Origin: Acidobacteriota bacterium
GTDB lineage: Bacteria; Acidobacteriota; Terriglobia; Terriglobales; Acidobacteriaceae
Length of the DNA: 10,522 nucleotides
Reading direction: 5' to 3'
Assembly (NCBI GenBank): GCA_021781255.1
Contig: JAJXXG010000505.1
Location: forward strand, 1-10,522
This document shows, in pieces, positions 1 through 10,522 of this stretch (the stretch's first letter is position 1; each line of letters starts with the position of its first letter). The position numbers were made by a program, and so were the translations under genes. The notes beneath the pieces were generated by a model that was not told the origin of the DNA, ran no database searches, and saw only the letters and a list, made by a program, of their open reading frames with translations.

Positions 1-1221
1 GAATCATCCGGCGACTTCGATGCAATCCTGCTCAACCTGCCCAATCCACAGACCGCGCAGCTCAACCGCTTTTACACAGCAGAGTTCTTCCGCTCCGCTC
101 ACGATCACCTCGCGCGGGGTGGGCTCTTCGCGCTCCAGCTTGGAGCATCGGAAGACTATATCAGCCCGCTGCTCGCAGAATTTCTGCGCTGCATCCACCG
201 CACGCTTCGCGAGGTCTTTCCCTATGTCGCCATCATTCCCGGCGGCACAATCCATTTCTTCTCCGCTGCGCAACCCGGCATTCTGACGGATGATCCGCAA
301 GTCCTCGTCCGCAGGCTGCAAGACCGCAATCTGCAGACGTTGTATGTGCACGAGTACTTCATTCCCTTCCGCATGACGCCCGACCGCATGGCACAGATCC
401 GTGACCTGTTGCAGCCTCTTCCTGAAACAGTGGTCAATCGCGATTTTCAGCCCGTCGCATATTACTTTGGCACTGTGCTCTGGAGCGCACAGTTCAAGTC
501 AGTCTATGCGCATCTCCTGCAGAGCGCATTTCACATTCCATTCACATCGCTCCTCGCAGTCATCGCCGTTCTTTCGTCTCTCTTCGTTGCTGTGTTTGCC
601 ATGTTGGCGGCGCCCCGTCAACGCGCCCGTGCCTCAGCCTTGTGGTCTGTATTTGCAACCGGCTACACACTCATGACGCTGCAGATTCTGGTCCTGCTGA
701 CTTTCCAATCCGTCTACGGCTATGTCTACAGCGAACTCGCCATGCTCATCGGCATGTTCATGACCGGCATTGCATTGGGAACCTGGTTCGGCATCGCACA
801 CAGGCACAACGGAGAAGGCCCGCCTCTGCTGCGAAGGGCTGCAACCAACCAGATGGTCCTCGCTATCGCCGCGCCTCTTCTTCTGCTGCTGGTGAGCCTG
901 CTCGCGCGCGATGCAGGCGCAGCCGCCTGGACTGCGCAGATTGTCTTCCCTGCGCTGGCGTTGCTGTGCGCAACCCCTGGAGGCTACCAGTTTCCCGCTG
1001 CCACGAAAATCTATCTTGGCGGCAACCAGACAAAGACAGGCGCAGGCACACTCTACGCGCTTGATCTGCTTGGAGGCTGCGCCGGTGCGCTCCTGCTGGC
1101 GGGGTTTTTGATCCCCTTGTTTGGCTTCTGGAACACCGCATGGCTGGCCACGGCCGTTTGCCTGGCGCCTGCGCTGCTCATGGCACGAGCTGCCATGGAT
1201 GCGCAGCCTATTGAGAACTAG
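1..1221 (+). CDS. Membrane protein with spermidine-synthase-like domain (5' end missing)
   Basis: The reading frame is open from base 1, so the N-terminus lies outside the window; 406 codons and a TAG stop are present. The first ~100 residues look like the C-terminal half of a spermidine/spermine synthase Rossmann domain, with FDAILLNLPNPQTAQLNRFY near residues 7-26 and a following LARGGLFALQL strand. A stretch containing DFQPVAYYFGTVLW (~148-161) precedes the membrane part, as in membrane-fused SpeE-like proteins. About six or seven hydrophobic helices follow, roughly at 180-203, 217-239, 243-265, 284-302, 309-327, 352-375 and 377-397. Canonical aminopropyltransferases carry an acidic D-S/T-x-D-P motif where this protein has N-L-P-N-P, so ordinary spermidine synthesis is doubtful. 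The gene converges on the amrB-amrA gene and overlaps it by 14 bp. Family assignment is fairly sure; the reaction is unknown. Confidence 0.8.
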   Translation, partial: ESSGDFDAILLNLPNPQTAQLNRFYTAEFFRSAHDHLARGGLFALQLGASEDYISPLLAEFLRCIHRTLREVFPYVAIIPGGTIHFFSAAQPGILTDDPQVLVRRLQDRNLQTLYVHEYFIPFRMTPDRMAQIRDLLQPLPETVVNRDFQPVAYYFGTVLWSAQFKSVYAHLLQSAFHIPFTSLLAVIAVLSSLFVAVFAMLAAPRQRARASALWSVFATGYTLMTLQILVLLTFQSVYGYVYSELAMLIGMFMTGIALGTWFGIAHRHNGEGPPLLRRAATNQMVLAIAAPLLLLLVSLLARDAGAAAWTAQIVFPALALLCATPGGYQFPAATKIYLGGNQTKTGAGTLYALDLLGGCAGALLLAGFLIPLFGFWNTAWLATAVCLAPALLMARAAMDAQPIEN

Positions 1222-2749
1222 CGGGCCGGTGCTCGCCGAAAACCACTGCTGTGAACATGAAGATATCGGTCTGTTCATCCTTCCAGCAGTCCGGGCGCAA
1301 GTCCGCCTTGGCGCAGGTCTCTTCAAGGAATCGGGTGCGATCCCAGTGCTGCTCTGTCGGAACCTGCGGAAGCAGCAGACCCTCATTGGTGCGGCTCTTC
1401 ATCAGCAAGCCATGCTGACCAACGACGATCTGACGAACGTCAAGCACGTGCCGGAGCGGTGAGAGCACTGAGATTTCGTACTGCAGTTTAGGCAACTCCT
1501 GCGTTGAAACCGGACGGAAGCGCGGATCGCGCAAAGCGGCCAGCACCGCGGTGTCCCGCACCGTCAGGTAGAGCGGCTTCATGGCAGAGGTATAGCCGAT
1601 GCACCCTCGCAGATCTCCAGCCTCCTTCAAAGTGACAAACGCACCGCGCTCTTGATGCAGCGCATCATCTGGAATCGCGCCCGGGTCATACGCCTTCTGC
1701 TCCCGAACGGCGGACTCGACCGACTTGCGGGCCACTGTCAGCAGCACATCCTTCTCGCGGTCACTCAGCGAATACGGTTTCTCCGCCGCTTGCTGGCCCG
1801 GCGCTTTCACCAGCGCCACCGCCCCATACCCCACAACATGCGAGCGGTCGCCTGTTACATCGCCGGAATTCGCATAGTGCAGCAGCTTGGCCTGATTCGC
1901 GCCCATGTGCTCGGCGGCAATCATTGCAGCCACGATTGGCGCGCCTCCACAGGCCTCCCACACGCGCGCATCAAAGTTCCGCGACATGCTGAAGTAGTCC
2001 CACGCTTGCAGCGCGTTCAGCGTCTTGTGGTCCATCTCTTCGGCCTCAGCGTAGGTGTGGTAATGCGATAGATCGGAGCTGGCCACAATCAACGTGTCTC
2101 CTGCATTCGACTTGGCAGATGAACCTTCGCGCTGGATCAGTTGAGCCAGCGCCATACCCAGGGCGCGGCTGCTCTCGTAGCTCTGATCTCCCATGATGAT
2201 CGGCACCAGCGCAAAACTGCCCAGCACGTGCTGCAGCCACGGCAACTGCACTTCAAGCGCGTGCTCCGCGCCTTTTGACGTAGCCAGATGACCGCGGCCC
2301 GAGAGCCTGATCGACGAGCTCATCTTCGTCAGTTGTTGCGCAAATGCCTTGTCCACAGGAATTGTTCCAAGTGGCGTCACATATCCGTCGCCGTCGTAAA
2401 CAGACGTGAAATCAAATGCCTCATAGTGCGATGGAGCAATCACAACAACGCGCGAATACTTGCGCCCTTTCAGCGCAGCATACGTGTAGGCCGCCACCGG
2501 GCCGGAGTATGGGTAGCCCGCGTGCGGCGCCACCACGGCCAGAATCTTGCCGCTGATGGCAGGTTGTGACGCATGCGACATCATGTCGTCCATCATGGCC
2601 GTCAGTTGCGCAGCATCAGCAGGGTAAAAGCTGCCGGCCACGCCTGCCTGCCGCAGCTTCTGCTGCTCCGCGCCAAAGGCCTGGTTCTGTGCCGCAAGCG
2701 CCGCGAAGCTGAAACTCAGGCCTGCCATGATGAACCTTCCCAATCGCAT
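1208..2749 (-). CDS. amrB-amrA: AmmeMemoRadiSam proteins B and A fused: Memo domain + AMMECR1 domain, with signal peptide
   Basis: The predicted protein has 513 residues. An N-terminal basic stretch and hydrophobic core (MRLGRFIMAGLSFSFAALAA) ending near AFG-A looks like a Sec signal peptide. Residues ~35-312 form a Memo-like domain with every residue expected for metal binding in the family: His in VAPHAGY (~75), His in IAPSHY (~107), Asp/His in SSDLSHY (~225-228) and Cys in ACGGAP (~266). Residues ~325-505 form an AMMECR1 domain with LRGCIGY (~379-385) and GLLLPQVPTEQHWDR. The frame is open further upstream to 2974, but that would overlap amrS by 190 bp. ATG 2749 has GAGG six bases upstream and starts directly at the signal peptide; ATG 2761 is the alternative. 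The gene lies 34 bp after amrS, so it is probably co-transcribed. Biochemical function is unknown; Memo and AMMECR1 proteins are normally thought to be cytosolic, so the signal peptide is unusual. Confidence 0.9.
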   Translation of the reverse strand: MRLGRFIMAGLSFSFAALAAQNQAFGAEQQKLRQAGVAGSFYPADAAQLTAMMDDMMSHASQPAISGKILAVVAPHAGYPYSGPVAAYTYAALKGRKYSRVVVIAPSHYEAFDFTSVYDGDGYVTPLGTIPVDKAFAQQLTKMSSSIRLSGRGHLATSKGAEHALEVQLPWLQHVLGSFALVPIIMGDQSYESSRALGMALAQLIQREGSSAKSNAGDTLIVASSDLSHYHTYAEAEEMDHKTLNALQAWDYFSMSRNFDARVWEACGGAPIVAAMIAAEHMGANQAKLLHYANSGDVTGDRSHVVGYGAVALVKAPGQQAAEKPYSLSDREKDVLLTVARKSVESAVREQKAYDPGAIPDDALHQERGAFVTLKEAGDLRGCIGYTSAMKPLYLTVRDTAVLAALRDPRFRPVSTQELPKLQYEISVLSPLRHVLDVRQIVVGQHGLLMKSRTNEGLLLPQVPTEQHWDRTRFLEETCAKADLRPDCWKDEQTDIFMFTAVVFGEHRPASSQ

Positions 2750-2783
2750 TCCCCGCCTCATACGCGCATCCCGTCTCCCGCCC

Positions 2784-4028
2784 TCATGCGTGCCACACCC
2801 CTGGAATCTCTTGCTTGCAAAACGGACACGCATCATTACGGATAAGCATCTGCCGGATTTCGAATCCGCCACGTTGCACCAGCATACGCCGGCATTGCGG
2901 ACAATAGGTATTCTCCGCAGGGTGCCCCGGCACATTCCCAATGTAGACAAAATGCAATCCCTCGGCCATGGCAATGTCGTGGGCGCGCTCCAGCGTCGAG
3001 ACCGGCGTAATGGGCAGATTCTTCAGCAGGTAGTCTGGGTGAAACTGTGTGAAGTGCACCGGAACATCCGTCCCGAGATTCGCCTTGATCCAGCGCGCCA
3101 TGCCGGTAAACTCCGCATCGCTGTCATTGAGAGTCGGCACGGCCAGGTAAACAATCTCATTCCATTTGCCCATCTTGCGCAACGCGACGAGTGTTTCCAG
3201 CACGGGCTTCAGCTCGCCTGACACGATCTTTCGGTAATAGGACTCGGAGAAGGACTTCAGGTCAATCTTGACCGCGTCCACTCTGCTGTAAACCGCCCGC
3301 AGTGGCTCGCTCTGAATGTAGCCGTTGGACACCACAATGCTGCGAATCCCTGCTTCGTGGCCCGCATCTGCCGCATCCATCACAAATTCGCTGAACACGG
3401 TCGGCTCGCTGTAGGTATACGCAATCGTCGGACAATGATTCTGCGCCGCCAGTTCCGCCACGCGTTTGGGCGGAATGTACTGCGAAGAGACCTGCTCGGG
3501 CCTCGCCTGTGAAATTTCCCAGTTCTGGCAGAATTTGCAGTCAACATTGCAGCCGGCCGTAGCCAGAGAGAATGCCAGCGTTCCCGGCAGATAATGGAAG
3601 AACGGCTTCTTCTCAACCGGATCCACGTGCGCCGCGCACACGCGCGAGTGAACCAGCGTGTAGTAGACGCCGCCCCGATTCTCGCGGACTCCGCAATATC
3701 CGCGCTCCTTGTCGCCCACCGTACAGCCGCGCGGGCAGAGATTGCACTTGATCCTCTTGCTGGGGAGCTTCTCATAGAATCTTGCTTCCACGGCAAACTG
3801 CGCATCGTCCTGCTTCGCCGCGCTGTCCGGCGGCGGCATGGCAGGGAACGGCTCAACAAGGTGTGGAATGCCTCCCGCCACTCCCACTGACACCGCGCAC
3901 ATCAGAAAAGACCGGCGGTTGATAGGAACCGACACCAGTTCGCGCCCGGCGCAATTCACGTTCGCTGCAGCCGGCATCTCCGCGCTCGTCTCTGAGCCTG
4001 TCGATTGTGTGAAGAGATTCGTTGTCAT
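2784..4028 (-). CDS. amrS: AmmeMemoRadiSam system radical SAM enzyme with Tat-like signal
   Basis: The protein has 414 residues. Residues 37-42 (NRRSFL) followed by a weakly hydrophobic stretch (43-58) resemble a twin-arginine signal behind a long 36-residue n-region. A cysteine-rich segment follows (C95, C98, C102, C112), then the radical SAM CxxxCxxC motif as CNVDCKFCQNW (C160, C164, C167), which binds the 4Fe-4S cluster that cleaves S-adenosylmethionine. YTYSEPT, VDAVKIDLKSF and VPTLND fit the PflA-like radical SAM fold of this family. The C-terminus has two more CxxC pairs (376/379 and 401/404), like a zinc ribbon. The start at 4028 is well supported by GGGAGG at 4040-4035, six bases before ATG. 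Only 12 bp separate it from the DUF362 gene upstream. Substrate unknown. Family assignment is strong; export is inferred from the N-terminus alone. Confidence 0.93.
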   Translation of the reverse strand: MTTNLFTQSTGSETSAEMPAAANVNCAGRELVSVPINRRSFLMCAVSVGVAGGIPHLVEPFPAMPPPDSAAKQDDAQFAVEARFYEKLPSKRIKCNLCPRGCTVGDKERGYCGVRENRGGVYYTLVHSRVCAAHVDPVEKKPFFHYLPGTLAFSLATAGCNVDCKFCQNWEISQARPEQVSSQYIPPKRVAELAAQNHCPTIAYTYSEPTVFSEFVMDAADAGHEAGIRSIVVSNGYIQSEPLRAVYSRVDAVKIDLKSFSESYYRKIVSGELKPVLETLVALRKMGKWNEIVYLAVPTLNDSDAEFTGMARWIKANLGTDVPVHFTQFHPDYLLKNLPITPVSTLERAHDIAMAEGLHFVYIGNVPGHPAENTYCPQCRRMLVQRGGFEIRQMLIRNDACPFCKQEIPGVWHA

Positions 4029-4034
4029 CGCACA

Positions 4035-4040
4035 CCTCCC
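4035..4040 (-). promoter_or_regulatory. Ribosome binding site of amrS
   Basis: On the minus strand GGGAGG stands six bases before the ATG at 4028 and directly follows the TAA of the DUF362 gene. It fixes the amrS start and hence keeps the whole Tat-like N-terminus in the protein. Confidence 0.8.
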
Positions 4041-5060
4041 TTACGCTACCCGCACCTCGGCGAGCGTAATGCGCCGTGGATCGTTCATCCCCAGGCGGTG
4101 CGCTGCATCAGCCGCGGTGGCAATGTAGCGCGGCGTGCGGCCCTCGGCATCGAGCGTCTTGAGCCCCTTCTCGGCCCGCTTGCGCTCAATGATCTGCCAC
4201 CCGATCGTATCGAGCGCCACCGGATCATGCGCGACAATCAGCGCGTTGTGCTGCCAGGTAAATTCCGGCTTGAAGCTCGGCCCGCCTTCAAAGCAGGCGT
4301 TTGTCGCATCGCAAATCGTCAGGCGCAGCTTTGCCCGTATCTCCGGCAGCATGTTCACGTCCGCGATATACGGGTCACATCCATTCGGGTGGTACTTGTT
4401 GGGATTGTGAATCACGCCATACATATTCTTCAGCGCAATTGAAACCCCGGCGCCATCGTGATCCTTCAGGACTGGAACATTGATCAGCACGTCGCATCGC
4501 TGCGTCAGAATTTTCGACAGCCTGCTTCCAACAGTGCCCCAGGTCACCAGTTCGCCTTCATAACCCACGCGGTCGGTGCCAAAACACTGCACCTGATTTC
4601 CGCCCGTGCGTATTCGAAATCCTGCGCGCTCCAGTTCCACGCTATCGCGATCCCAGATCACAATCTGCTGCGGCCTGACGCCCGCTCCCTGCAGCCTTTC
4701 ACAAATCGCCTCCACCAGCGGCACATTGCTTGAAAGTCCGCGCCCGCCCAGCGTGTTCACCTTCACGCCGACCATCAGCCCTCGGCGGACAAGCCTCGTC
4801 CAGGGCTGCATTGGTTCATCGGCGCCAAAGATGCTTTGCATCGCATGATCGAGCAAGGTGACCACGCGGCGTGAGTCGACAGCACCCTCCGCGTCGCGCA
4901 GCAACGCATCATGCGCAATCGCAACTCTGGCTTTCGTTGCAGAGGAAGCAGTCTCTGCTGAATCCAGCGGAAAAGCACTTTCCCCGGCGGCAGCACCCGC
5001 AGCTCCAGCAAGGCAATTGCTCAAGAAACTCCGCCGGCTCGTGATGCGCTCGTTGCGCAT
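4041..5060 (-). CDS. DUF362 domain protein with twin-arginine signal peptide
   Basis: The protein has 339 residues and starts with a textbook Tat signal: TSRRSFLSNCLAGAAGAAAG at 7-26. The rest matches the DUF362 family in my reading: KVNTLGGRGLSSNVPLVEAI (~100-119), a central INVPVLKDHDGAGVSIALKN (~193-212) and HDPVALDTIGWQIIERKR (~278-295) near the C-terminus. Unlike some family members it has no appended ferredoxin domain: its five cysteines, at ~16, 120, 159, 189, 228, 250 and 256 counting the signal, form no CxxCxxC motif. The frame is open upstream to 5186, but ATG 5060 is preferred because GGAG lies eight bases upstream and the Tat signal follows at once. It is the first gene of the operon with amrS and amrB-amrA. 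Its molecular role is unknown; location predicts an exported partner of that system. Confidence 0.87.
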   Translation of the reverse strand: MRNERITSRRSFLSNCLAGAAGAAAGESAFPLDSAETASSATKARVAIAHDALLRDAEGAVDSRRVVTLLDHAMQSIFGADEPMQPWTRLVRRGLMVGVKVNTLGGRGLSSNVPLVEAICERLQGAGVRPQQIVIWDRDSVELERAGFRIRTGGNQVQCFGTDRVGYEGELVTWGTVGSRLSKILTQRCDVLINVPVLKDHDGAGVSIALKNMYGVIHNPNKYHPNGCDPYIADVNMLPEIRAKLRLTICDATNACFEGGPSFKPEFTWQHNALIVAHDPVALDTIGWQIIERKRAEKGLKTLDAEGRTPRYIATAADAAHRLGMNDPRRITLAEVRVA

Positions 5061-5523
5061 AATGCATTCTCCACAGGGACGCGCCAGGCCATACGCAGCC
5101 AAGCATGATATACCGCTCCCGGCAGCGCATCTCAGTGACGCGGGACACAACAATCTTTGCCCTGATCGCCAGTCCGCATAGCGCACACCCCGCCGTTTCC
5201 TTCATTCGGCGGGAATACATTCGATGCAGCGAGCAGAAAAGGAAGATCGGCTCTTCGCCCTTCTAACCGGCGGAGATGGAGGATGTTGCGCACCGCATGG
5301 CGCCGCATTCTGCGGGCCGCGCAAAATTCGCTGTTGCTTTTTAGCCGGTCTCCTGCGAATATCGAAATATGCAAGGTCGCCCCTGTTGTCGCCGCTGTTC
5401 GCCGCTTCGCGCGCAGAGGTGACCTGGGTCTAAAAGTTCGAAGTTAATTCCAAGGTTTCTGAATGCCCGCGATGCAGCCATAGCTGCCGCGGGATTTTTT
5501 TGTTTTTGGCAAAAGGGGAAGAA
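5061..5523. other. Divergent intergenic region between the DUF362 and reductase genes
   Basis: These 463 bases separate two operons read outwards and should hold the promoters of both. Contents: GGAG at 5069-5072 (minus) serving the DUF362 gene; an inverted repeat CCCGCCG/CGGCGGG at 5189-5195 and 5207-5213 with an 11-base spacer; an open frame 5224-5433 (+) of 69 codons with five Cys codons, two of them CC pairs; and an intrinsic terminator at 5466-5507. GGGG at 5515-5518 lies five bases before the reductase ATG. A possible minus-strand -10 (TATATC, 5113-5108) and a weak plus-strand TTGCTT/GAATAT pair around 5334-5361 are not convincing. I recognise no known riboswitch class; the SAM-I and cobalamin signature motifs are absent. 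Confidence 0.6.
5466..5507 (+). terminator. Intrinsic terminator in the leader of the nitrite/sulfite reductase gene
   Basis: CCCGCG (5466-5471) and GCAGC (5474-5478) pair with GCTGC (5483-5487) and CGCGGG (5488-5493) around a CATA loop: 11 base pairs with one two-base bulge. A T-rich tract follows (seven T at 5495-5501, then G and five T). This is a strong rho-independent terminator for plus-strand transcripts only, since the minus strand has no T-run after the hairpin. It ends 16 bases before the reductase ATG, so it either ends a short upstream transcript or acts as an attenuator of the operon. Confidence 0.85.
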
Positions 5524-7221
5524 ATGACTGAAGCTGTTCAATCTAAAGAGACCAAGGCGCAGCGTTCTGAGCGCTTGAAGCGCGAAAAGAACCCATGGGA
5601 AGCCTTCGATGAAGTGCGCGCTTTTGCACGGCAGGGGCGCTCCAGCGTCGTTCCCGAGTGGGCATCGACGTACTTCAAGTGGTGGGGCGTCTACACGCAG
5701 GGCGACGGCGTGGGCGCGACCGGCGGCAAGGGTGGCGAGGGCGTCACCTCCGACTACTTCATGATGCGCATCGGCATCCCCAATGGCATTCTCACCGCCC
5801 ACCAGCTTCGCATCATCGCCGGAATCACACGCAAGTACGCTCGTAACCTGGCCGACATCACAGTACGCCAGAACATCCAGCTCCACTGGCTCACCATCGA
5901 GTCGCTTCCCGAGGTGGTGGACGCGCTCGACGCCATCGGCCTCTCGCCCAAAGGAGCCTGCGGCGACGTAGTGCGCAACGTCACCGGTTGCCCTCTGGCC
6001 GGGGTGGACGCGGATGAACTCATCGACTCATCGCAGCTTGCCATCGATATTGCGCGATTGCTCACGGCCAACCCGGAGTTCTACAACCTGCCGCGGAAAT
6101 TCAAAATCTCCGTCACCGGCTGCCCCACGTGGTGCAACTACCCGGAGATCAATGACGTCGCCCTCACGCCGGTGGCGCACAGCGGCCAGGTGGGCTATGC
6201 ACTGCGCGTGGGTGGCGGGCTCTCAAAGGAACCGCATCTTGCCATCCCCATCGATGCCTTCATCCTGCCCGATCAGGCTCTCCGCGTTGTGCGCACGGTT
6301 GTTGAAATCTTCCGCGATCAGCAGGGCCTGCGCGAGAATCGCGATCGCGCCCGCTTGAAATATCTTTTCCTGAAAGAGGGTTGGACTCCCGAATCGTTTC
6401 GCGCTGAGCTCCAGTCGCGCCTCGACTTCACGCTGCTTCCCGGCGTGCCCGAGAACGTGCCCGACGAAACCCTGCGCGACCACGCCGGCATTCATCCGCA
6501 GCGGCAGCCCGGCCTCAGCTACGTTGGCGCGTCCGTGCTGCGCGGACGCATGACGGGCGACCAGTTGGAAGCCGCAGCCGATCTCGCCGATCGCTACGGC
6601 ACAGGAGAACTCCGCGCTACCGTCTCACAGAACCTTTTGTTCATCAACGTTCCCTACCAGAAGTCCGGTGAACTGGCGCGCGAGCTCGGCAAGCTCGGCC
6701 TGCATGTCGAAGGCTCTTCCTTCTGGCGCGGCGCAATCGCCTGCACAGGCACTGAGTTCTGCAAGCTGGCCATCACTGAGACCAAGGGCTTTACCCGCTG
6801 GCTGGTGGAGGAGCTTGAGGAGCGCCTGCCGCAGTTCGATCAGGATCTCCGGCTTCATGTGACCGGCTGCCCCAACGGCTGCGGCCAGCACTGGATCGCC
6901 GACATCGGCATCGAGGGCAAGAAAATCAAGCACGACGGCAAGCTCACCGATGCGTACTACTTCTGTCTCGGCGGAGCCGTGGGCCGCGACTCATCCATTG
7001 CGCGCCCGGTTGGATTTCGCTGCCCCGCGCCGCTTGTTCCGGAAGCGATCGAGCGCCTGCTGCGCGAATATCTCGCCAGCCGCACTCAAAATGAAAATCT
7101 TCGCACCTGGTTCCAGCGCCATTCTGACGACGAGTTGCGCGCTCATCTTGCCGGAGAGTCTTTGCCGGCTGTTGAACGCGACCTGCCCGCCGGCCGAGTA
7201 CCACACGCCGTGGCCGATTGA
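5524..7221 (+). CDS. Nitrite/sulfite reductase, siroheme- and 4Fe-4S-dependent (ferredoxin type)
   Basis: The 565-residue protein has the doubled layout of the siroheme reductase family, with two ferredoxin-like half-domains (~75-140 and ~330-395) and two catalytic halves. The cluster and siroheme ligands are visible in the second half: CTGTEFC (C407, C413) and VTGCPNGC (C449, C453). VRQNIQLHW (114-122) and KFKISVTGCP (~192-201) are family motifs. It reduces sulfite to sulfide or nitrite to ammonia by six electrons, normally from ferredoxin, in the cytoplasm. FKWWGVYTQ near the N-terminus and KGACGD (C146) recall the SirA-like group, in which a Tyr-Cys crosslink was described; Y57 and C146 are candidates, but nitrite reductase remains possible. 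ATG 5524 has GGGG five bases upstream; an in-frame TTG at 5500 lies inside the terminator T-run and is rejected. The siroheme synthase gene follows after 11 bp. Confidence 0.93.
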   Translation: MTEAVQSKETKAQRSERLKREKNPWEAFDEVRAFARQGRSSVVPEWASTYFKWWGVYTQGDGVGATGGKGGEGVTSDYFMMRIGIPNGILTAHQLRIIAGITRKYARNLADITVRQNIQLHWLTIESLPEVVDALDAIGLSPKGACGDVVRNVTGCPLAGVDADELIDSSQLAIDIARLLTANPEFYNLPRKFKISVTGCPTWCNYPEINDVALTPVAHSGQVGYALRVGGGLSKEPHLAIPIDAFILPDQALRVVRTVVEIFRDQQGLRENRDRARLKYLFLKEGWTPESFRAELQSRLDFTLLPGVPENVPDETLRDHAGIHPQRQPGLSYVGASVLRGRMTGDQLEAAADLADRYGTGELRATVSQNLLFINVPYQKSGELARELGKLGLHVEGSSFWRGAIACTGTEFCKLAITETKGFTRWLVEELEERLPQFDQDLRLHVTGCPNGCGQHWIADIGIEGKKIKHDGKLTDAYYFCLGGAVGRDSSIARPVGFRCPAPLVPEAIERLLREYLASRTQNENLRTWFQRHSDDELRAHLAGESLPAVERDLPAGRVPHAVAD

Positions 7222-7232
7222 GGATGCAACCC

Positions 7233-8609
7233 ATGAGTCTGCTGCCCATCTTTCTCAAACTCGACAACCGTCCCTGCCTGCTGGTCGGCGCAGGCAATGT
7301 TGCGCTTGAAAAAATCGGCAGCCTGCTCAAGACAGGCTTGCGTCTGCGCGTCGTCGCGCCCGATGCCAGACCCGAAGTGCAGCAGTTGGCAGCCGCGGGC
7401 AAGCTCGAATGGGTCCAGCGCCCGTTCGATCTCAACGACCTCGACGGCAACTTCCTGGTCATCGCCGCAACTGATTCCCCTGAGGTCAACGCATCTGTCT
7501 ATCGTGGAGCAGTCGAGCGCAACATCCCCTGCAACAGCGTGGATGACATTCCCAACTGCGATTTCTTTTTCGGCTCGGTCGTGACCCGCGGCGCATTGCA
7601 GATCGCCATCTCCACAGCCGGGGAAAGCCCCGCGGTCGCGCAGCGTCTGCGCCGCGAAATCGACGAGCAGCTCCCACAGGACCTGGGACCATGGCTCGAA
7701 AACCTCGGCCAGCTTCGCCGCGACATTCTTGCGACACATCCCCGCGGCGACGCCCGCAAAGCTCTCCTCCACCAGCTCGCGCAGCGTCAGGTCTGCGGCG
7801 CTGCCTCGTGCCCCTCGCGCCACATGGCCCTTGCGCCGCTTGTGCCCGAAACTGCCACCGGCGAGGGCAAGGTCTATCTGGTCGGCGCCGGTCCCGGTGC
7901 CCCCGACCTGCTCACCGTGAAAGCGCTGCGCCTCATTCAGTCCGCGCAGGTCATCCTCCACGATGACCTTGTCCCCGATGCCATCCTGCAGCTCGCCCCA
8001 CAGTCCGCTGAAGTCGTCAACGTGGGCAAACGCTGCGGCGTAAAGAACATCACGCAGCAGGAGATCAACGAGCTGATGGTGAAGCACGCCCGCGCAGATC
8101 GCAGCGTGGTTCGCCTCAAAAGCGGAGACCCGCTCCTCTTTGGCCGCGCCGCAGAGGAAATGGCTGCGCTCGCCGAAGCGGACATCCCGTATGAAGCCGT
8201 TCCCGGAATCAGCGCCGCCTTCGCAGCCGCGGCAGCCGTCGGCTGCTCGCTCACCAGCCGCAACACGGCATCCAGCGTAACCTTCTCCACAGGCCATCAC
8301 GCGCAGTCCCACAGCCAGGCGCCTCTGCCTCAGTTGGAGGACGCGACCCGCGTCGTCTACATGCCCGGCCGCGATCTGAGCCTGCTCGCGCTTGAGTGGC
8401 TTCAGGAAGGTCTCCCGCGCGAGTTCCCTTGCGCCCTGGTCTCGCGCGCCGCCCAGCCCGACCAGCAGATTCGCTACACCACGCTCGCTGAGCTGGGCGA
8501 AGCCGAACCCACCCTTGCACCCAGCCTCCTCATCGCCGGCTGGGCGGTGCAGGAATCATCCGCCACCTGCCCCACTGCTATGGACAGAGCAGCAGCCGCA
8601 CTCGCCTGA
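7233..8609 (+). CDS. cysG: Siroheme synthase: precorrin-2 dehydrogenase/ferrochelatase fused to uroporphyrinogen-III methyltransferase
   Basis: The 458-residue length is close to E. coli CysG. The N-terminal Met8-like half has the NAD-binding loop LLVGAGNVALEK (16-27), VIAATDSPEVN (76-86), CNSVDDIPNCDFFFGSVV (100-117) with the presumed catalytic Asp, and STAGESPAVAQRLR (127-140). A linker containing VCGAASC leads to the SUMT half: KVYLVGAGPGAPDLLT (213-228), VNVGKRCG (262-269), VVRLKSGDPLLFGR (292-305) and EAVPGISAA (321-329). Together they convert uroporphyrinogen III to siroheme, the cofactor of the reductase 11 bp upstream. The usual His after GKRxG is replaced by KN here, and GCSLTSRN stands where GIPLTHR is usual. 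ATG 7233 has GAGG nine bases upstream, and the protein start matches the family; ATG 7224 and an overlapping TTG at 7218 are less likely. Confidence 0.94.
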   Translation: MSLLPIFLKLDNRPCLLVGAGNVALEKIGSLLKTGLRLRVVAPDARPEVQQLAAAGKLEWVQRPFDLNDLDGNFLVIAATDSPEVNASVYRGAVERNIPCNSVDDIPNCDFFFGSVVTRGALQIAISTAGESPAVAQRLRREIDEQLPQDLGPWLENLGQLRRDILATHPRGDARKALLHQLAQRQVCGAASCPSRHMALAPLVPETATGEGKVYLVGAGPGAPDLLTVKALRLIQSAQVILHDDLVPDAILQLAPQSAEVVNVGKRCGVKNITQQEINELMVKHARADRSVVRLKSGDPLLFGRAAEEMAALAEADIPYEAVPGISAAFAAAAAVGCSLTSRNTASSVTFSTGHHAQSHSQAPLPQLEDATRVVYMPGRDLSLLALEWLQEGLPREFPCALVSRAAQPDQQIRYTTLAELGEAEPTLAPSLLIAGWAVQESSATCPTAMDRAAAALA

Positions 8610-8679: not shown

Positions 8680-8700
8680 GTGTCTGCTATATGCAGACGC
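8680..8700 (+). promoter_or_regulatory. Palindrome just downstream of the putative mtnP -10
   Basis: GTCTGC (8682-8687) and GCAGAC (8693-8698) flank TATAT as a perfect inverted repeat. As RNA it extends to eight pairs, including one G-U. It starts about four bases after the -10, where transcription should begin, so it could be an operator or a 5'-end stabilising hairpin. It is not followed by a T-run. Confidence 0.35.
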
Positions 8701-8726
8701 ACGGGCTGAAAATGAGGCTCGTCGCA

Positions 8727-8732
8727 AAGGAG
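8727..8732 (+). promoter_or_regulatory. Ribosome binding site that selects the TTG start of mtnP
   Basis: AAGGAG is followed by six bases and then TTG at 8739. In-frame ATGs at 8691 and 8712 have no comparable site upstream, and the first falls inside the palindrome. Confidence 0.75.
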
Positions 8733-8738
8733 CGGGCC

Positions 8739-9602
8739 TTGGCTCAGGCAGAAATCGGCATCATCGGCGGCAGCGGACTCTACTCCATGCCCGGATTCAC
8801 CAACGTCCGCGAAGAGCGCGTGGAAACGCCCTTCGGCGACCCTTCCGACGTTTTCGTCCTCGGCGAACTCGAGGGGCGCAAAGTCGCCTTCCTCGCCCGC
8901 CATGGGCGCGGCCATCGCATCCTGCCATCAGAGCTGAACTTCCGCGCCAACATCTACGCCTTCAAGAAACTCGGCGTCGAGCGCATCCTGTCCGCCTCAG
9001 CCGTCGGCTCCCTCAAAGAAGAGCACAAGCCCACCGACTTCGTCATTCCCGACCAGTTCATCGACCGCACCTTCCATCGCGTCTCCACTTTCTTTGGCGA
9101 TGGCATCGTGGGCCATGTGGCCTTTGGCGATCCCGTTTGCGCCACCGTCGCCCGCACCGCGGCCCAGGCCTGCGCCACGGTCGGTGTCGTGGGCAAACTG
9201 GGCGGCACCTATGTCTGCATGGAGGGCCCGCAATTCTCCACCAGGGCCGAGTCGAACCTCTACCGCAGTTGGGGCGCCGACGTCATCGGCATGACCAACC
9301 TGCAGGAAGCCAAGCTGGCCCGCGAGGCCGAGATCTGCTACGCTACCGTGGCCATGGTCACGGACTACGATTGCTGGCGCGAAGGCCATGACGCCGTCAC
9401 CATTGAAGAAATCGTAGCCGTCCTCCACCAGAACGCTGAGAACGCCGCCAGGGTGGTAAAAGCAGCGGTAGCGGCCATGCCAGTGGGGCGCACCTGCGCC
9501 TGCGCGTCGGCCGCCAAATTCGCCGTCCTCACTCAACCGGACGCAATCCCGGCTGCAACCAAAGAAAACCTGAAGCTGCTCTTCGGAAAATATCTCGGCT
9601 GA
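8739..9602 (+). CDS. mtnP: S-methyl-5'-thioadenosine phosphorylase
   Basis: The 287-residue protein has the nucleoside phosphorylase (PNP/MTAP family) layout: IGIIGGSGLY (6-15) at the N-terminus, ARHGRGHRILPSE (53-65) for phosphate binding, YVCMEGPQFSTRAES (158-172) and GMTNLQEAKLARE (184-196). TDYDCW (208-213) supplies the two Asp residues (209, 211) that in MTAP replace the purine-discriminating Asn of PNP, pointing to methylthioadenosine rather than inosine or guanosine. It splits methylthioadenosine with phosphate into adenine and methylthioribose-1-phosphate in the cytoplasm; some bacterial relatives also take 5'-deoxyadenosine. TTG 8739 is chosen as start because of AAGGAG six bases upstream and because the family normally begins just before this GIIGGSGLY motif; starts at 8691 or 8712 would add 9-16 uncharacteristic residues. 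A PfkB kinase gene follows after 49 bp. Confidence 0.92.
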   Translation: MAQAEIGIIGGSGLYSMPGFTNVREERVETPFGDPSDVFVLGELEGRKVAFLARHGRGHRILPSELNFRANIYAFKKLGVERILSASAVGSLKEEHKPTDFVIPDQFIDRTFHRVSTFFGDGIVGHVAFGDPVCATVARTAAQACATVGVVGKLGGTYVCMEGPQFSTRAESNLYRSWGADVIGMTNLQEAKLAREAEICYATVAMVTDYDCWREGHDAVTIEEIVAVLHQNAENAARVVKAAVAAMPVGRTCACASAAKFAVLTQPDAIPAATKENLKLLFGKYLG

Positions 9603-9651
9603 TAACATACCCGCCGCAAGATAAATAAGTTCGAGTTATGGAGAAAGTTAC

Positions 9652-10522
9652 ATGGCAATTACCGTAGTAGGCAGCGTCGCATTCGATTCAATCGAAACCC
9701 CAGCAGGACGCCGCGAGCGCTGCCTCGGCGGCGCGGCAACTTATTTCTCTCTCGCTGCCAGTTACTTCACAGATGTGCGCGTCATCGCCGTTGTCGGCGA
9801 GGACTTTGGCCCCCACGAAGAGAAAGTCTTCACCGCGCGCGGCATTGACATGCGCGGCATCGAGCACGCCCCTGGCAAGAGCTTCTTCTGGGAAGGCTCA
9901 TACCTCGAAAACCTCAACGAAGCCAGGACTCATAACACCGAGCTCAATGTCTTCGGGTCTTTCCAGCCCAAGATTCCCGATGCTTACCGCGACTCAGAGT
10001 TCCTGTTTCTTGCCAATATCGATCCCGTCCTTCAGCGCCGCGTGCGCGAAGCCATGCCGCAGGCCCGCCTCGTCGCCGGCGACACCATGAATTACTGGAT
10101 CAAGGATCATCGCGCCTCGCTGCTCGAAGTGCTCAAGGGGCTCGACGTGCTGCTCATCAATGACACAGAGACCCGCATGCTCGCCGGCAACAACAACATG
10201 GTCAAAGCCGCGCGCGCGGTGCTCAACATGGGGCCGCGCATGCTCGTCGTCAAGCACGGCGAGTATGGCGCCACCGTCTTCCACAAAGCCGACCACGAGG
10301 CCGGCGCAAAAACCTTCCGCGCACCCGCCCTCCCGCTCGAAGAAGTCATCGACCCCACCGGCGCAGGCGACAGCTTTGCCGGCGGCTTCTTTGGCTATCT
10401 CGCTTCGCAGCCCGCGCTCACGCCCGCCACGTTCCGGCGCGCCATGTTCTACGGCAGTGTCATGGGATCGTTCACCGTGGAGCGCTTCGGCACAGAGCGC
10501 CTGCAGCAGCTCTCGCGCGAGG
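9652..10522 (+). CDS. PfkB/ribokinase-family sugar or nucleoside kinase (3' end missing)
   Basis: The frame is open from ATG 9652 to the end of the window, giving 290 residues with no stop. VVGSVAFDSI (5-14) and CLGGAATYFS (24-33) form the N-terminal PfkB substrate region, LLINDTETRMLAG (167-179) the middle, and DPTGAGDSFAGGFF (234-247) the C-terminal signature with the anion hole and catalytic Asp240. GGAG lies eight bases before the ATG. These enzymes phosphorylate sugars or nucleosides with ATP in the cytoplasm; the substrate cannot be read from the sequence. Its place 49 bp after mtnP suggests co-transcription and perhaps a role in ribose or adenosine salvage, but MtnP already releases a phosphorylated sugar, so no kinase step is obviously needed. 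Most of the protein is probably present, as the family is usually about 300-330 residues. Confidence 0.9.
   Translation, partial: MAITVVGSVAFDSIETPAGRRERCLGGAATYFSLAASYFTDVRVIAVVGEDFGPHEEKVFTARGIDMRGIEHAPGKSFFWEGSYLENLNEARTHNTELNVFGSFQPKIPDAYRDSEFLFLANIDPVLQRRVREAMPQARLVAGDTMNYWIKDHRASLLEVLKGLDVLLINDTETRMLAGNNNMVKAARAVLNMGPRMLVVKHGEYGATVFHKADHEAGAKTFRAPALPLEEVIDPTGAGDSFAGGFFGYLASQPALTPATFRRAMFYGSVMGSFTVERFGTERLQQLSRE

What the first reader, a model, noticed from the sequence alone, without database searches (positions are those of the whole stretch)
1208..5060. An AmmeMemoRadiSam operon in which all three products carry export signals
The DUF362 protein (SRRSFLSNCLAG), the radical SAM enzyme (NRRSFLMCAVSVG) and the Memo-AMMECR1 fusion (MRLGR plus a hydrophobic core) each start with a Tat- or Sec-like signal, and the start codons giving these N-termini have good ribosome binding sites. 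Memo, AMMECR1 and their radical SAM partner are conserved from bacteria to eukaryotes without an agreed reaction and are normally regarded as cytosolic. Three independent signals in one operon argue against chance and point to an envelope-located variant whose third partner is a DUF362 protein.
Basis: partly seen in the sequence, partly recalled or inferred. Interest (0 to 1): 0.75.

Follow-up and report, generated by a model that had tools for sequence, protein, structure and literature searches.

The report
An exported radical-SAM enzyme system
Some bacteria appear to send a whole set of partner enzymes, normally kept inside the cell, to the outer side of the cell membrane, together with a membrane protein that looks built to handle the fuel molecule (SAM) that this chemistry needs.

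Summary
DUF362, AmrS (radical SAM, TIGR04337) and the Memo-AMMECR1 fusion (AmrBA) form one minus-strand operon, each with an export-type leader. Twin Arg is invariant in 22 of 22 aligned AmrS. Leadered AmrS form essentially one branch of the AmrS tree, reaching Acidobacteriota, Latescibacterota, Calditrichota and KSB1. Leaderless AmrS form the other side; many genomes carry one of each. AmrB leaders track AmrS leaders: present in 107 of 108 leadered loci, absent in 17 of 18 leaderless ones. M occurs in 73 of 77 sampled Acidobacteriota genomes with leader-clade AmrS and 7 of 220 without. In five Terriglobia genomes whose AmrS lost its leader, M is gone in 5 of 5, the operon-type DUF362 in 5 of 5 and the AmrB leader in 4 of 5. 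Best reading: an envelope-located AmmeMemoRadiSam module, with M handling SAM at the membrane. Location is well supported by comparison; SAM supply is inference. No SignalP run or experiment.

The parts
4041..5060 (-). DUF362 protein (PF04015), 339 aa
   Evidence: Pfam 72.9 bits; same-length homologues with the same N-terminus; LarA-like fold by a weak Foldseek match
4965..5060 (-). Tat-like leader of DUF362 (SRRSFLSNCLAGAAGAAAG)
   Evidence: TIGR01409 E 0.0094, just under cut-off; 20 of 24 aligned proteins match at E up to 1
5069..5072 (-). GGAG ribosome-binding site of DUF362
   Evidence: read from sequence
2784..4028 (-). AmrS, radical SAM enzyme of the AmmeMemoRadiSam system, 414 aa
   Evidence: TIGR04337 373.7 bits against cut-off 220
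3834..3923 (-). Tat-like leader region of AmrS (NRRSFLMCAVSVGVAGG), residues 36-65
   Evidence: R38, R39, F41 invariant in 22 aligned AmrS; conserved across phyla
4033..4040 (-). GGGAGGTG ribosome-binding site of AmrS
   Evidence: read from sequence
3528..3551 (-). radical SAM CxxxCxxC motif (C160, C164, C167)
   Evidence: CxxxCxxC present in 221 of 221 AmrS cores examined
1208..2761 (-). AmrBA, Memo-AMMECR1 fusion, 517 aa (513 aa if started at 2749)
   Evidence: TIGR04336 and TIGR04335 over cut-off; Memo metal ligands conserved
2669..2761 (-). Sec-type leader of AmrBA (MRRGMRLGRFIMAGLSFSFAALAAQNQAFGA)
   Evidence: hydrophobic core 1.98 on the Kyte-Doolittle scale; leaders in 107 of 108 AmrB beside leadered AmrS
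1814..2653 (-). Memo (AmrB) domain
   Evidence: TIGR04336 residues 108-387 of the 588-aa ORF
1238..1747 (-). AMMECR1 (AmrA) domain
   Evidence: TIGR04335 residues 410-579 of the 588-aa ORF
1..1221 (+). M: C-terminal part of a membrane protein with a spermidine-synthase-like domain, convergent with the operon; its 5' part lies outside the window
   Evidence: 526 bits to the M model, positions 344-723; the full homologue L001:7826-10162 was modelled

Best explanation
This is an extracytoplasmic (envelope) variant of the AmmeMemoRadiSam system. AmrS, and usually DUF362, go out through Tat with their cofactors; AmrBA goes out through Sec, in some relatives perhaps as a lipoprotein; all then act at the outer face of the inner membrane. 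A fourth partner, M, is a 14-helix MFS-like protein carrying a SAM-binding-type (spermidine-synthase-like) domain on the outer side. Supported by comparison here: leaders conserved and co-varying, one leadered clade beside a leaderless one, M and DUF362 tied to the leadered form and lost with it. Predicted: topology of M and its loss of the residue that aminopropyltransferases need. Inferred: M brings SAM out, or holds it at the outer face, for AmrS, which would otherwise have none; AmrS and AmrBA run the same unknown reaction as their cytosolic paralogues on an envelope substrate; DUF362 handles substrate or product. My confidence is about 0.8 for the envelope module and about 0.35 for SAM supply by M.
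Against: No SignalP, cleavage or localisation data. Radical SAM enzymes need SAM and a low-potential electron donor, and neither is known to me outside the cytoplasm. L050 lost the AmrS leader but kept the AmrB leader. DUF362 lacks a leader in the D-S-M group. Few independent leader changes exist, so tree-aware tests cannot reach significance: 3-4 pairs, concordant for M in 2-3 of 3, none opposed; for DUF362 in 1-2 of 3, none opposed. Four leader-clade genomes lack M and seven have M without leader-clade AmrS, and in the second phylum five lack M and one has a partial M without it; some may be incomplete assemblies, and in the first phylum the search scored at most 3 (M) or 7 (AmrS) candidates per genome. 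M keeps the catalytic Asp in 22 of 83 rows, so loss of aminopropyl transfer is not proven for those. SAM binding or transport by M is untested.
Confidence: 0.65

Rival explanations
1. M is not a SAM supplier but a membrane methyltransferase (or another SAM-using transferase) that modifies an exported product or protein of the same pathway, like fungal NHMT, a seven-helix membrane protein with a spermidine-synthase-like methyltransferase domain that methylates secreted LPMOs.
For: Same domain logic and same missing acid in GxG(D/E)G as NHMT (PMC10349129, passages); weak profile match to METTL13, E 2.6e-5.
Against: The M model matches two-half MFS proteins, more than an anchor would need, and M is lost where AmrS loses its leader. 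An outward-facing methyltransferase would itself need SAM outside, so this rival also implies SAM export.
Confidence: 0.3
2. The leaders export the proteins, but AmrS does its radical chemistry in the cytoplasm before export, for instance on AmrBA or DUF362, and is carried out as a complex; the exported complex does something else.
For: SAM and reductant are cytoplasmic; Tat exports folded proteins (established knowledge); DUF362 without a leader in the D-S-M group could be a Tat hitchhiker.
Against: Sec substrates such as AmrBA cross unfolded (established knowledge); it gives no role to M, which tracks the leader.
Confidence: 0.15
3. M, DUF362 and the leaders occur together only because one ancestral locus was inherited and sometimes deleted whole, with no functional tie.
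For: Few independent changes; tree-aware pairs too few for significance.
Against: In Calditrichota-type and several Terriglobia genomes M is not found beside AmrS yet is kept; in leader-lost genomes AmrS and AmrBA stay together while the AmrS leader, M and operon DUF362 are gone.
Confidence: 0.1
4. The leaders are artefacts of start choice or non-functional hydrophobic N-termini.
For: Window AmrS is not hit by PF10518 and DUF362 falls just under TIGR01409; the AmrBA start is uncertain.
Against: Twin Arg invariant in 22 of 22; conserved across phyla and co-varying with the AmrB leader; 2.8% chance rate of the loose rule.
Confidence: 0.04

Closest known systems
AmmeMemoRadiSam system (TIGR04335/04336/04337), cytosolic form
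   Same: Same three domains, radical SAM cluster motif and Memo metal ligands; one of each form often sits in the same genome.
   Different: Leadered; AmrB and AmrA mostly fused (97 of 107 leadered AmrB); accompanied by M and often DUF362; about 380 bits against up to about 665 for the best leaderless forms.
MFS_SpdSyn (NF037959) and membrane-bound polyamine aminopropyltransferase (PRK03612)
   Same: MFS-like helices joined to a spermidine-synthase-like domain; four M proteins score 63.2 (L001), 62.4 (L066), 43.9 (L152) and 31.6 (L166) bits against the NF037959 cut-off of 40.
   Different: Domain lies between two 7-helix halves; acid of GGG(D/E)G missing in 82 of 83 rows; far under the PRK03612 cut-off of 472.
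Fungal NHMT (7TM + SpdS-like methyltransferase, PMC10349129; passages read)
   Same: Membrane helices plus a spermidine-synthase-like domain lacking the acidic residue, acting on an exported protein.
   Different: One 7-helix half only, helices then domain; fungi; sequence relation of the helices not tested.
LarA / DUF2088 (Pfam clan CL0471 with DUF362, PMC11770544; passages read)
   Same: Shared clan; the DUF362 model matches LarA-type structures weakly (Foldseek best E 5.6e-5; query TM 0.32-0.43 over the 7 matches at E up to 0.001).
   Different: No evidence of nickel-pincer cofactor binding; shorter; leadered.

Membership tests
AmmeMemoRadiSam system | AmrS over the TIGR04337 cut-off | tested here: met
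   373.7 bits, cut-off 220
AmmeMemoRadiSam system | AmrB and AmrA over the TIGR04336/04335 cut-offs, beside AmrS | tested here: met
   264.2/26 and 174.7/99 bits, adjacent gene
AmmeMemoRadiSam system | Cytosolic location (general assumption, not part of the models) | tested here: inconclusive
   Leaders conserved and co-varying argue for export; no localisation data
Radical SAM superfamily | CxxxCxxC cluster motif | tested here: met
   Present in 221 of 221 cores; Pfam Radical_SAM 64.8 bits
Tat substrate (AmrS, DUF362) | Twin Arg followed by a hydrophobic region | tested here: met
Tat substrate (AmrS, DUF362) | Curated Tat model over its cut-off | tested here: not met
   Window DUF362 16.3 bits against 16.7; window AmrS no PF10518 match at E up to 1; of all aligned proteins, the window's included, 20 of 24 and 12 of 22 match at E up to 1
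Tat substrate (AmrS, DUF362) | Tat-dependent export | not testable with these tools
   Needs reporter fusions
Spermidine synthase (for M) | Spermidine-synthase fold | tested here: met
Spermidine synthase (for M) | Acid in GxG(D/E)G (requirement as stated in PMC10349129) | tested here: not met
   Missing in 82 of 83 rows with letters there; L043 has Glu; Ile in L001
Spermidine synthase (for M) | Catalytic Asp (position recalled) | tested here: inconclusive
   Asn 44, Asp 22, Gly 9, Ala 5, Ser 2, Cys 1 of 83; Asn in the window's M
14-helix MFS transporter (for M) | MFS-type fold over both helix halves, 14 helices | tested here: met
MEMO1-type metal site | Ligands equivalent to H49, H81, C244 | tested here: met
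   His 170, His 168 and Cys 162 of 172 rows, the rest gaps but for one Asp and one Thr; ligands from PMC11081632, passages
LarA superfamily (for DUF362) | LarA-like fold and cofactor site | tested here: inconclusive
   Weak Foldseek matches only; cofactor site not examined

The most novel reading that the evidence does not exclude
Bacteria run radical-SAM chemistry outside the cytoplasm. M is a dedicated SAM exporter that hands SAM at the outer face to a Tat-exported radical SAM enzyme, with a c-type haem on the enzyme as possible electron relay in one clade. Where AmrS stays inside, M and DUF362 become useless and are lost. To my knowledge that would be the first extracytoplasmic radical SAM system and the first bacterial SAM export route built for one.
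Probability: 0.3. Interest if true: 0.95.

Novelty: new variant of a known kind. Interest (0 to 1): 0.76.

Why it matters
Memo and AMMECR1 are conserved up to humans and have no agreed reaction. An envelope version with two extra partners, one of them a SAM-type membrane protein, narrows what the reaction can be: it must make sense outside the cell, it still needs SAM, and the partners needed only outside (M, DUF362) can be told from the core (AmrS, AmrBA). Genomes with both versions, and Terriglobia that lost the outside version, give natural controls. If the enzyme does work outside, the rule that radical SAM chemistry is cytoplasmic falls.

Tried and rejected
The neighbouring nirA, cysG and MTAP genes as parts of the system: relatives of them turn up in only 7, 6 and 3 of the 221 loci, the window included (loci are 3-11 kb, so some end too soon), so I treat them as local neighbours. 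A link between 5'-deoxyadenosine salvage by MTAP and the system was dropped for that reason.

DUF362 as a ferredoxin-like electron donor: the invariant columns of the 24-row alignment contain no cysteine; no support.

Tree-aware correlation test: too few independent changes to reach significance.

Search for published work: 'AmmeMemoRadiSam' (5 papers, one mention each; listing seen), AMMECR1+Memo+radical SAM (one paper, PMC7159879; passages), ring-dioxygenase variant (same paper), five Tat/export terms with radical SAM (4 papers) and radical SAM + Tat signal (3 papers): PMC10924467 seen by passage (a neighbouring gene only), the others by listing only. DUF362 + radical SAM (none), DUF362 (9 papers; PMC11770544 passages; PMC12423673 passages, which concern DUF3623 instead), spermidine synthase with membrane domain or transporter (PMC10349129 passages), MEMO1 iron (PMC11081632 passages). 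The key earlier paper, Burroughs et al. 2019 (JBC, doi 10.1074/jbc.RA119.007595; named), is not held. From memory, it describes five Memo families and further gene contexts, so parts of this context may already be in print.

Weaknesses kept in view: score cut-offs for leader-clade AmrS (E 1.5e-138) and M (E 5e-67) were placed at gaps seen in the results. The tree used 182 of 221 AmrS (of L001-L049 every fifth; cores of 280 aa or more). One search left out two loci (L049, leader cut; L133, AmrB cut). AmrS regions fetched and AmrB regions were chosen by hand from longer lists, favouring genomes with two copies, so counts over loci are not population frequencies; the genome counts are the fairer ones. 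Leader labels of L156, L061 (added) and L214 (removed) were set by eye after the rule. A first look at 22 M proteins overstated the loss of the catalytic Asp; a count over all aligned M corrected it.

Full report
What is in the window. On the minus strand lie, in order, a DUF362 protein (5060-4041), the radical SAM enzyme AmrS (4028-2784) and a Memo-AMMECR1 fusion, AmrBA (2761 or 2749 to 1208), with gaps of 12 and 22 bases between genes. Family models place AmrS and AmrBA firmly in the AmmeMemoRadiSam system. Convergent to them, cut by the window edge, is the C-terminal part of a membrane protein with a spermidine-synthase-like domain (1-1221, plus strand), called M here. No whole genome is held for the window; the closest loci found are Acidobacteriota metagenome assemblies (L001, 89% identity over AmrS).

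The leaders are real and conserved. The best homologues of all three proteins mostly keep the N-termini (120 listed for each; 40-45 of each printed; a few are shortened by start choice). In 22 aligned AmrS, R38, R39 and F41 are invariant. A genome scan kept 80 loci of 378 relatives, in Acidobacteriota but also Latescibacterota, Calditrichota, a Deferribacteres-labelled genome and KSB1; the twin-Arg motif persists in most of them, and a few Terriglobia lack it. Curated Tat models match 20 of 24 DUF362 and 12 of 22 AmrS at E up to 1, but the window's own proteins fall just short or are not hit. A loose leader rule passes 2.8% of random ORF segments.

Two versions of the system. I searched TIGR04337 in 297 genomes of the phylum of G001 (Acidobacteriota by record title) and 80 of the phylum of G006 (Latescibacterota by title) and read regions around AmrS. 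Of 221 AmrS (220 loci and the window), 138 are leadered after three labels were set by eye. In a tree of 182 cores the leadered rows fall on one side: 104 rows, of which 97 were called leadered, two were miscalled (L061, L156) and five are real losses, against 78 rows with one leadered outlier, L167; 6 changes against about 60 in shuffles. Many genomes carry one copy of each kind, for example G023, G052, G110 and G240.

AmrB follows. Where AmrS is leadered, the AmrB in the locus is leadered in 107 of 108 cases; where AmrS is leaderless, AmrB is leaderless in 17 of 18, the exception being L050 (two loci left out; loci without AmrB not counted). The one leadered-AmrS locus scored without an AmrB signal, L126, has a hydrophobic stretch broken by one Asp. 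In 21 genomes with leadered AmrS, many with no AmrB in the AmrS locus, a Memo search found a leaderless stand-alone AmrB and a second, leadered AmrB in 20. In one of these, G010, a hydrophobic stretch upstream makes the 'leaderless' call uncertain; in G007 no leadered AmrB was found. The leadered one is fused to AMMECR1 in 19 of the 20. Nine AmrB leaders fit a simple lipoprotein motif. One clade of nine leadered AmrS carries CxxCH between leader and core.

M and DUF362 belong to the leadered version. DUF362 lies just upstream of AmrS in 90 of 138 leadered loci and 0 of 83 leaderless ones, though 18 and 42 of these have too little sequence upstream to tell. M is in the locus of 90 of 138 leadered and 1 of 83 leaderless loci; that one (L049) has its AmrS N-terminus cut off. 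Most leadered loci without M end too soon; the 13 that have 4-5 kb downstream all have M elsewhere in the genome. At genome level, with cut-offs set at clear gaps, 73 of 77 genomes with leader-clade AmrS have M, against 7 of 220 others. In a second phylum sample of 40 genomes it is 13 of 18 against 1 of 22 (a partial match), with M often not beside AmrS. These Fisher tests ignore kinship; on the tree only 3-4 independent contrasts exist, mostly concordant for M and none opposed, too few for significance.

Natural knock-outs. Five Terriglobia genomes (L046, L050, L060, L062, L069) have AmrS of the leadered clade that lost the leader, in two or three events on the tree. All five lack M, while 10 of 10 leadered relatives that I chose have it. 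Three have no DUF362 match at E up to 1e-20; the other two have only matches of 42-51% identity to the window's DUF362 (plus a short 36% piece), like the second paralogue of leadered genomes (48-50% in G001 and G432), while operon copies in L031 and L064 reach 61-65%. Four of five have lost or degraded the AmrB leader. AmrS and AmrBA themselves stay together. So the parts needed only when the enzyme is outside seem to be M and DUF362.

How it most likely works. Leaders take AmrS, AmrBA and usually DUF362 out. No SAM is expected there, and M is what could supply or hold it. Shown by comparison: leaders, co-variation, co-loss. Predicted: topology and fold of M. Inferred: SAM transport, site and nature of the reaction, role of DUF362, whose fold resembles LarA only weakly. 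In the D-S-M group DUF362 has no leader; it may ride out with AmrS through Tat or stay inside there.

What is known. The core is a known system of unknown reaction. My searches listed no paper that I could see to describe an exported form, but most hits were seen by listing only, and the main earlier analysis of Memo contexts is not held and may contain part of this. I therefore call it a new variant of a known kind.

Noticed in passing
L142, L166, L181, L194, L200, L205, L206, L208, L219 (AmrS leader region): Nine leadered AmrS of one clade carry a CxxCH motif between the Tat leader and the radical SAM core, as if a single c-type haem had been added; none of the other 212 AmrS does.
   Followed up: partly
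L060, L062, L069, L046, L050: Terriglobia in which AmrS lost its leader also lack M and the operon-type DUF362 in the genome: natural loss mutants of the envelope version.
   Followed up: yes
L146, L150, L152, L154, L156, L158 and similar: Loci with DUF362 - AmrS - M on one strand, no AmrB in the locus, and a leaderless DUF362 beside a leadered AmrS.
   Followed up: partly
L190, L193, L141, L165, L202, L204, L209-L218, L220: Further leaderless AmrS-like subfamilies with divergent cores (for example 'PARWWETMPDGRLHCYLCPRHC' in L190 and L193); their function was not examined.
   Followed up: no
window 5500-8609 (+): Divergent nitrite/sulfite reductase gene and siroheme synthase cysG beside the operon; relatives found in only 7 and 6 of 221 loci.
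   Followed up: partly
window 8691-10521 (+): Methylthioadenosine phosphorylase and a PfkB-type kinase follow; MTAP is found in only 3 of the loci, so it is probably unrelated.
   Followed up: partly
L167 and L197: Two long-branch AmrS with Tat leaders and low core scores; L167 lies outside the leadered clade in the tree, yet both loci contain M.
   Followed up: no
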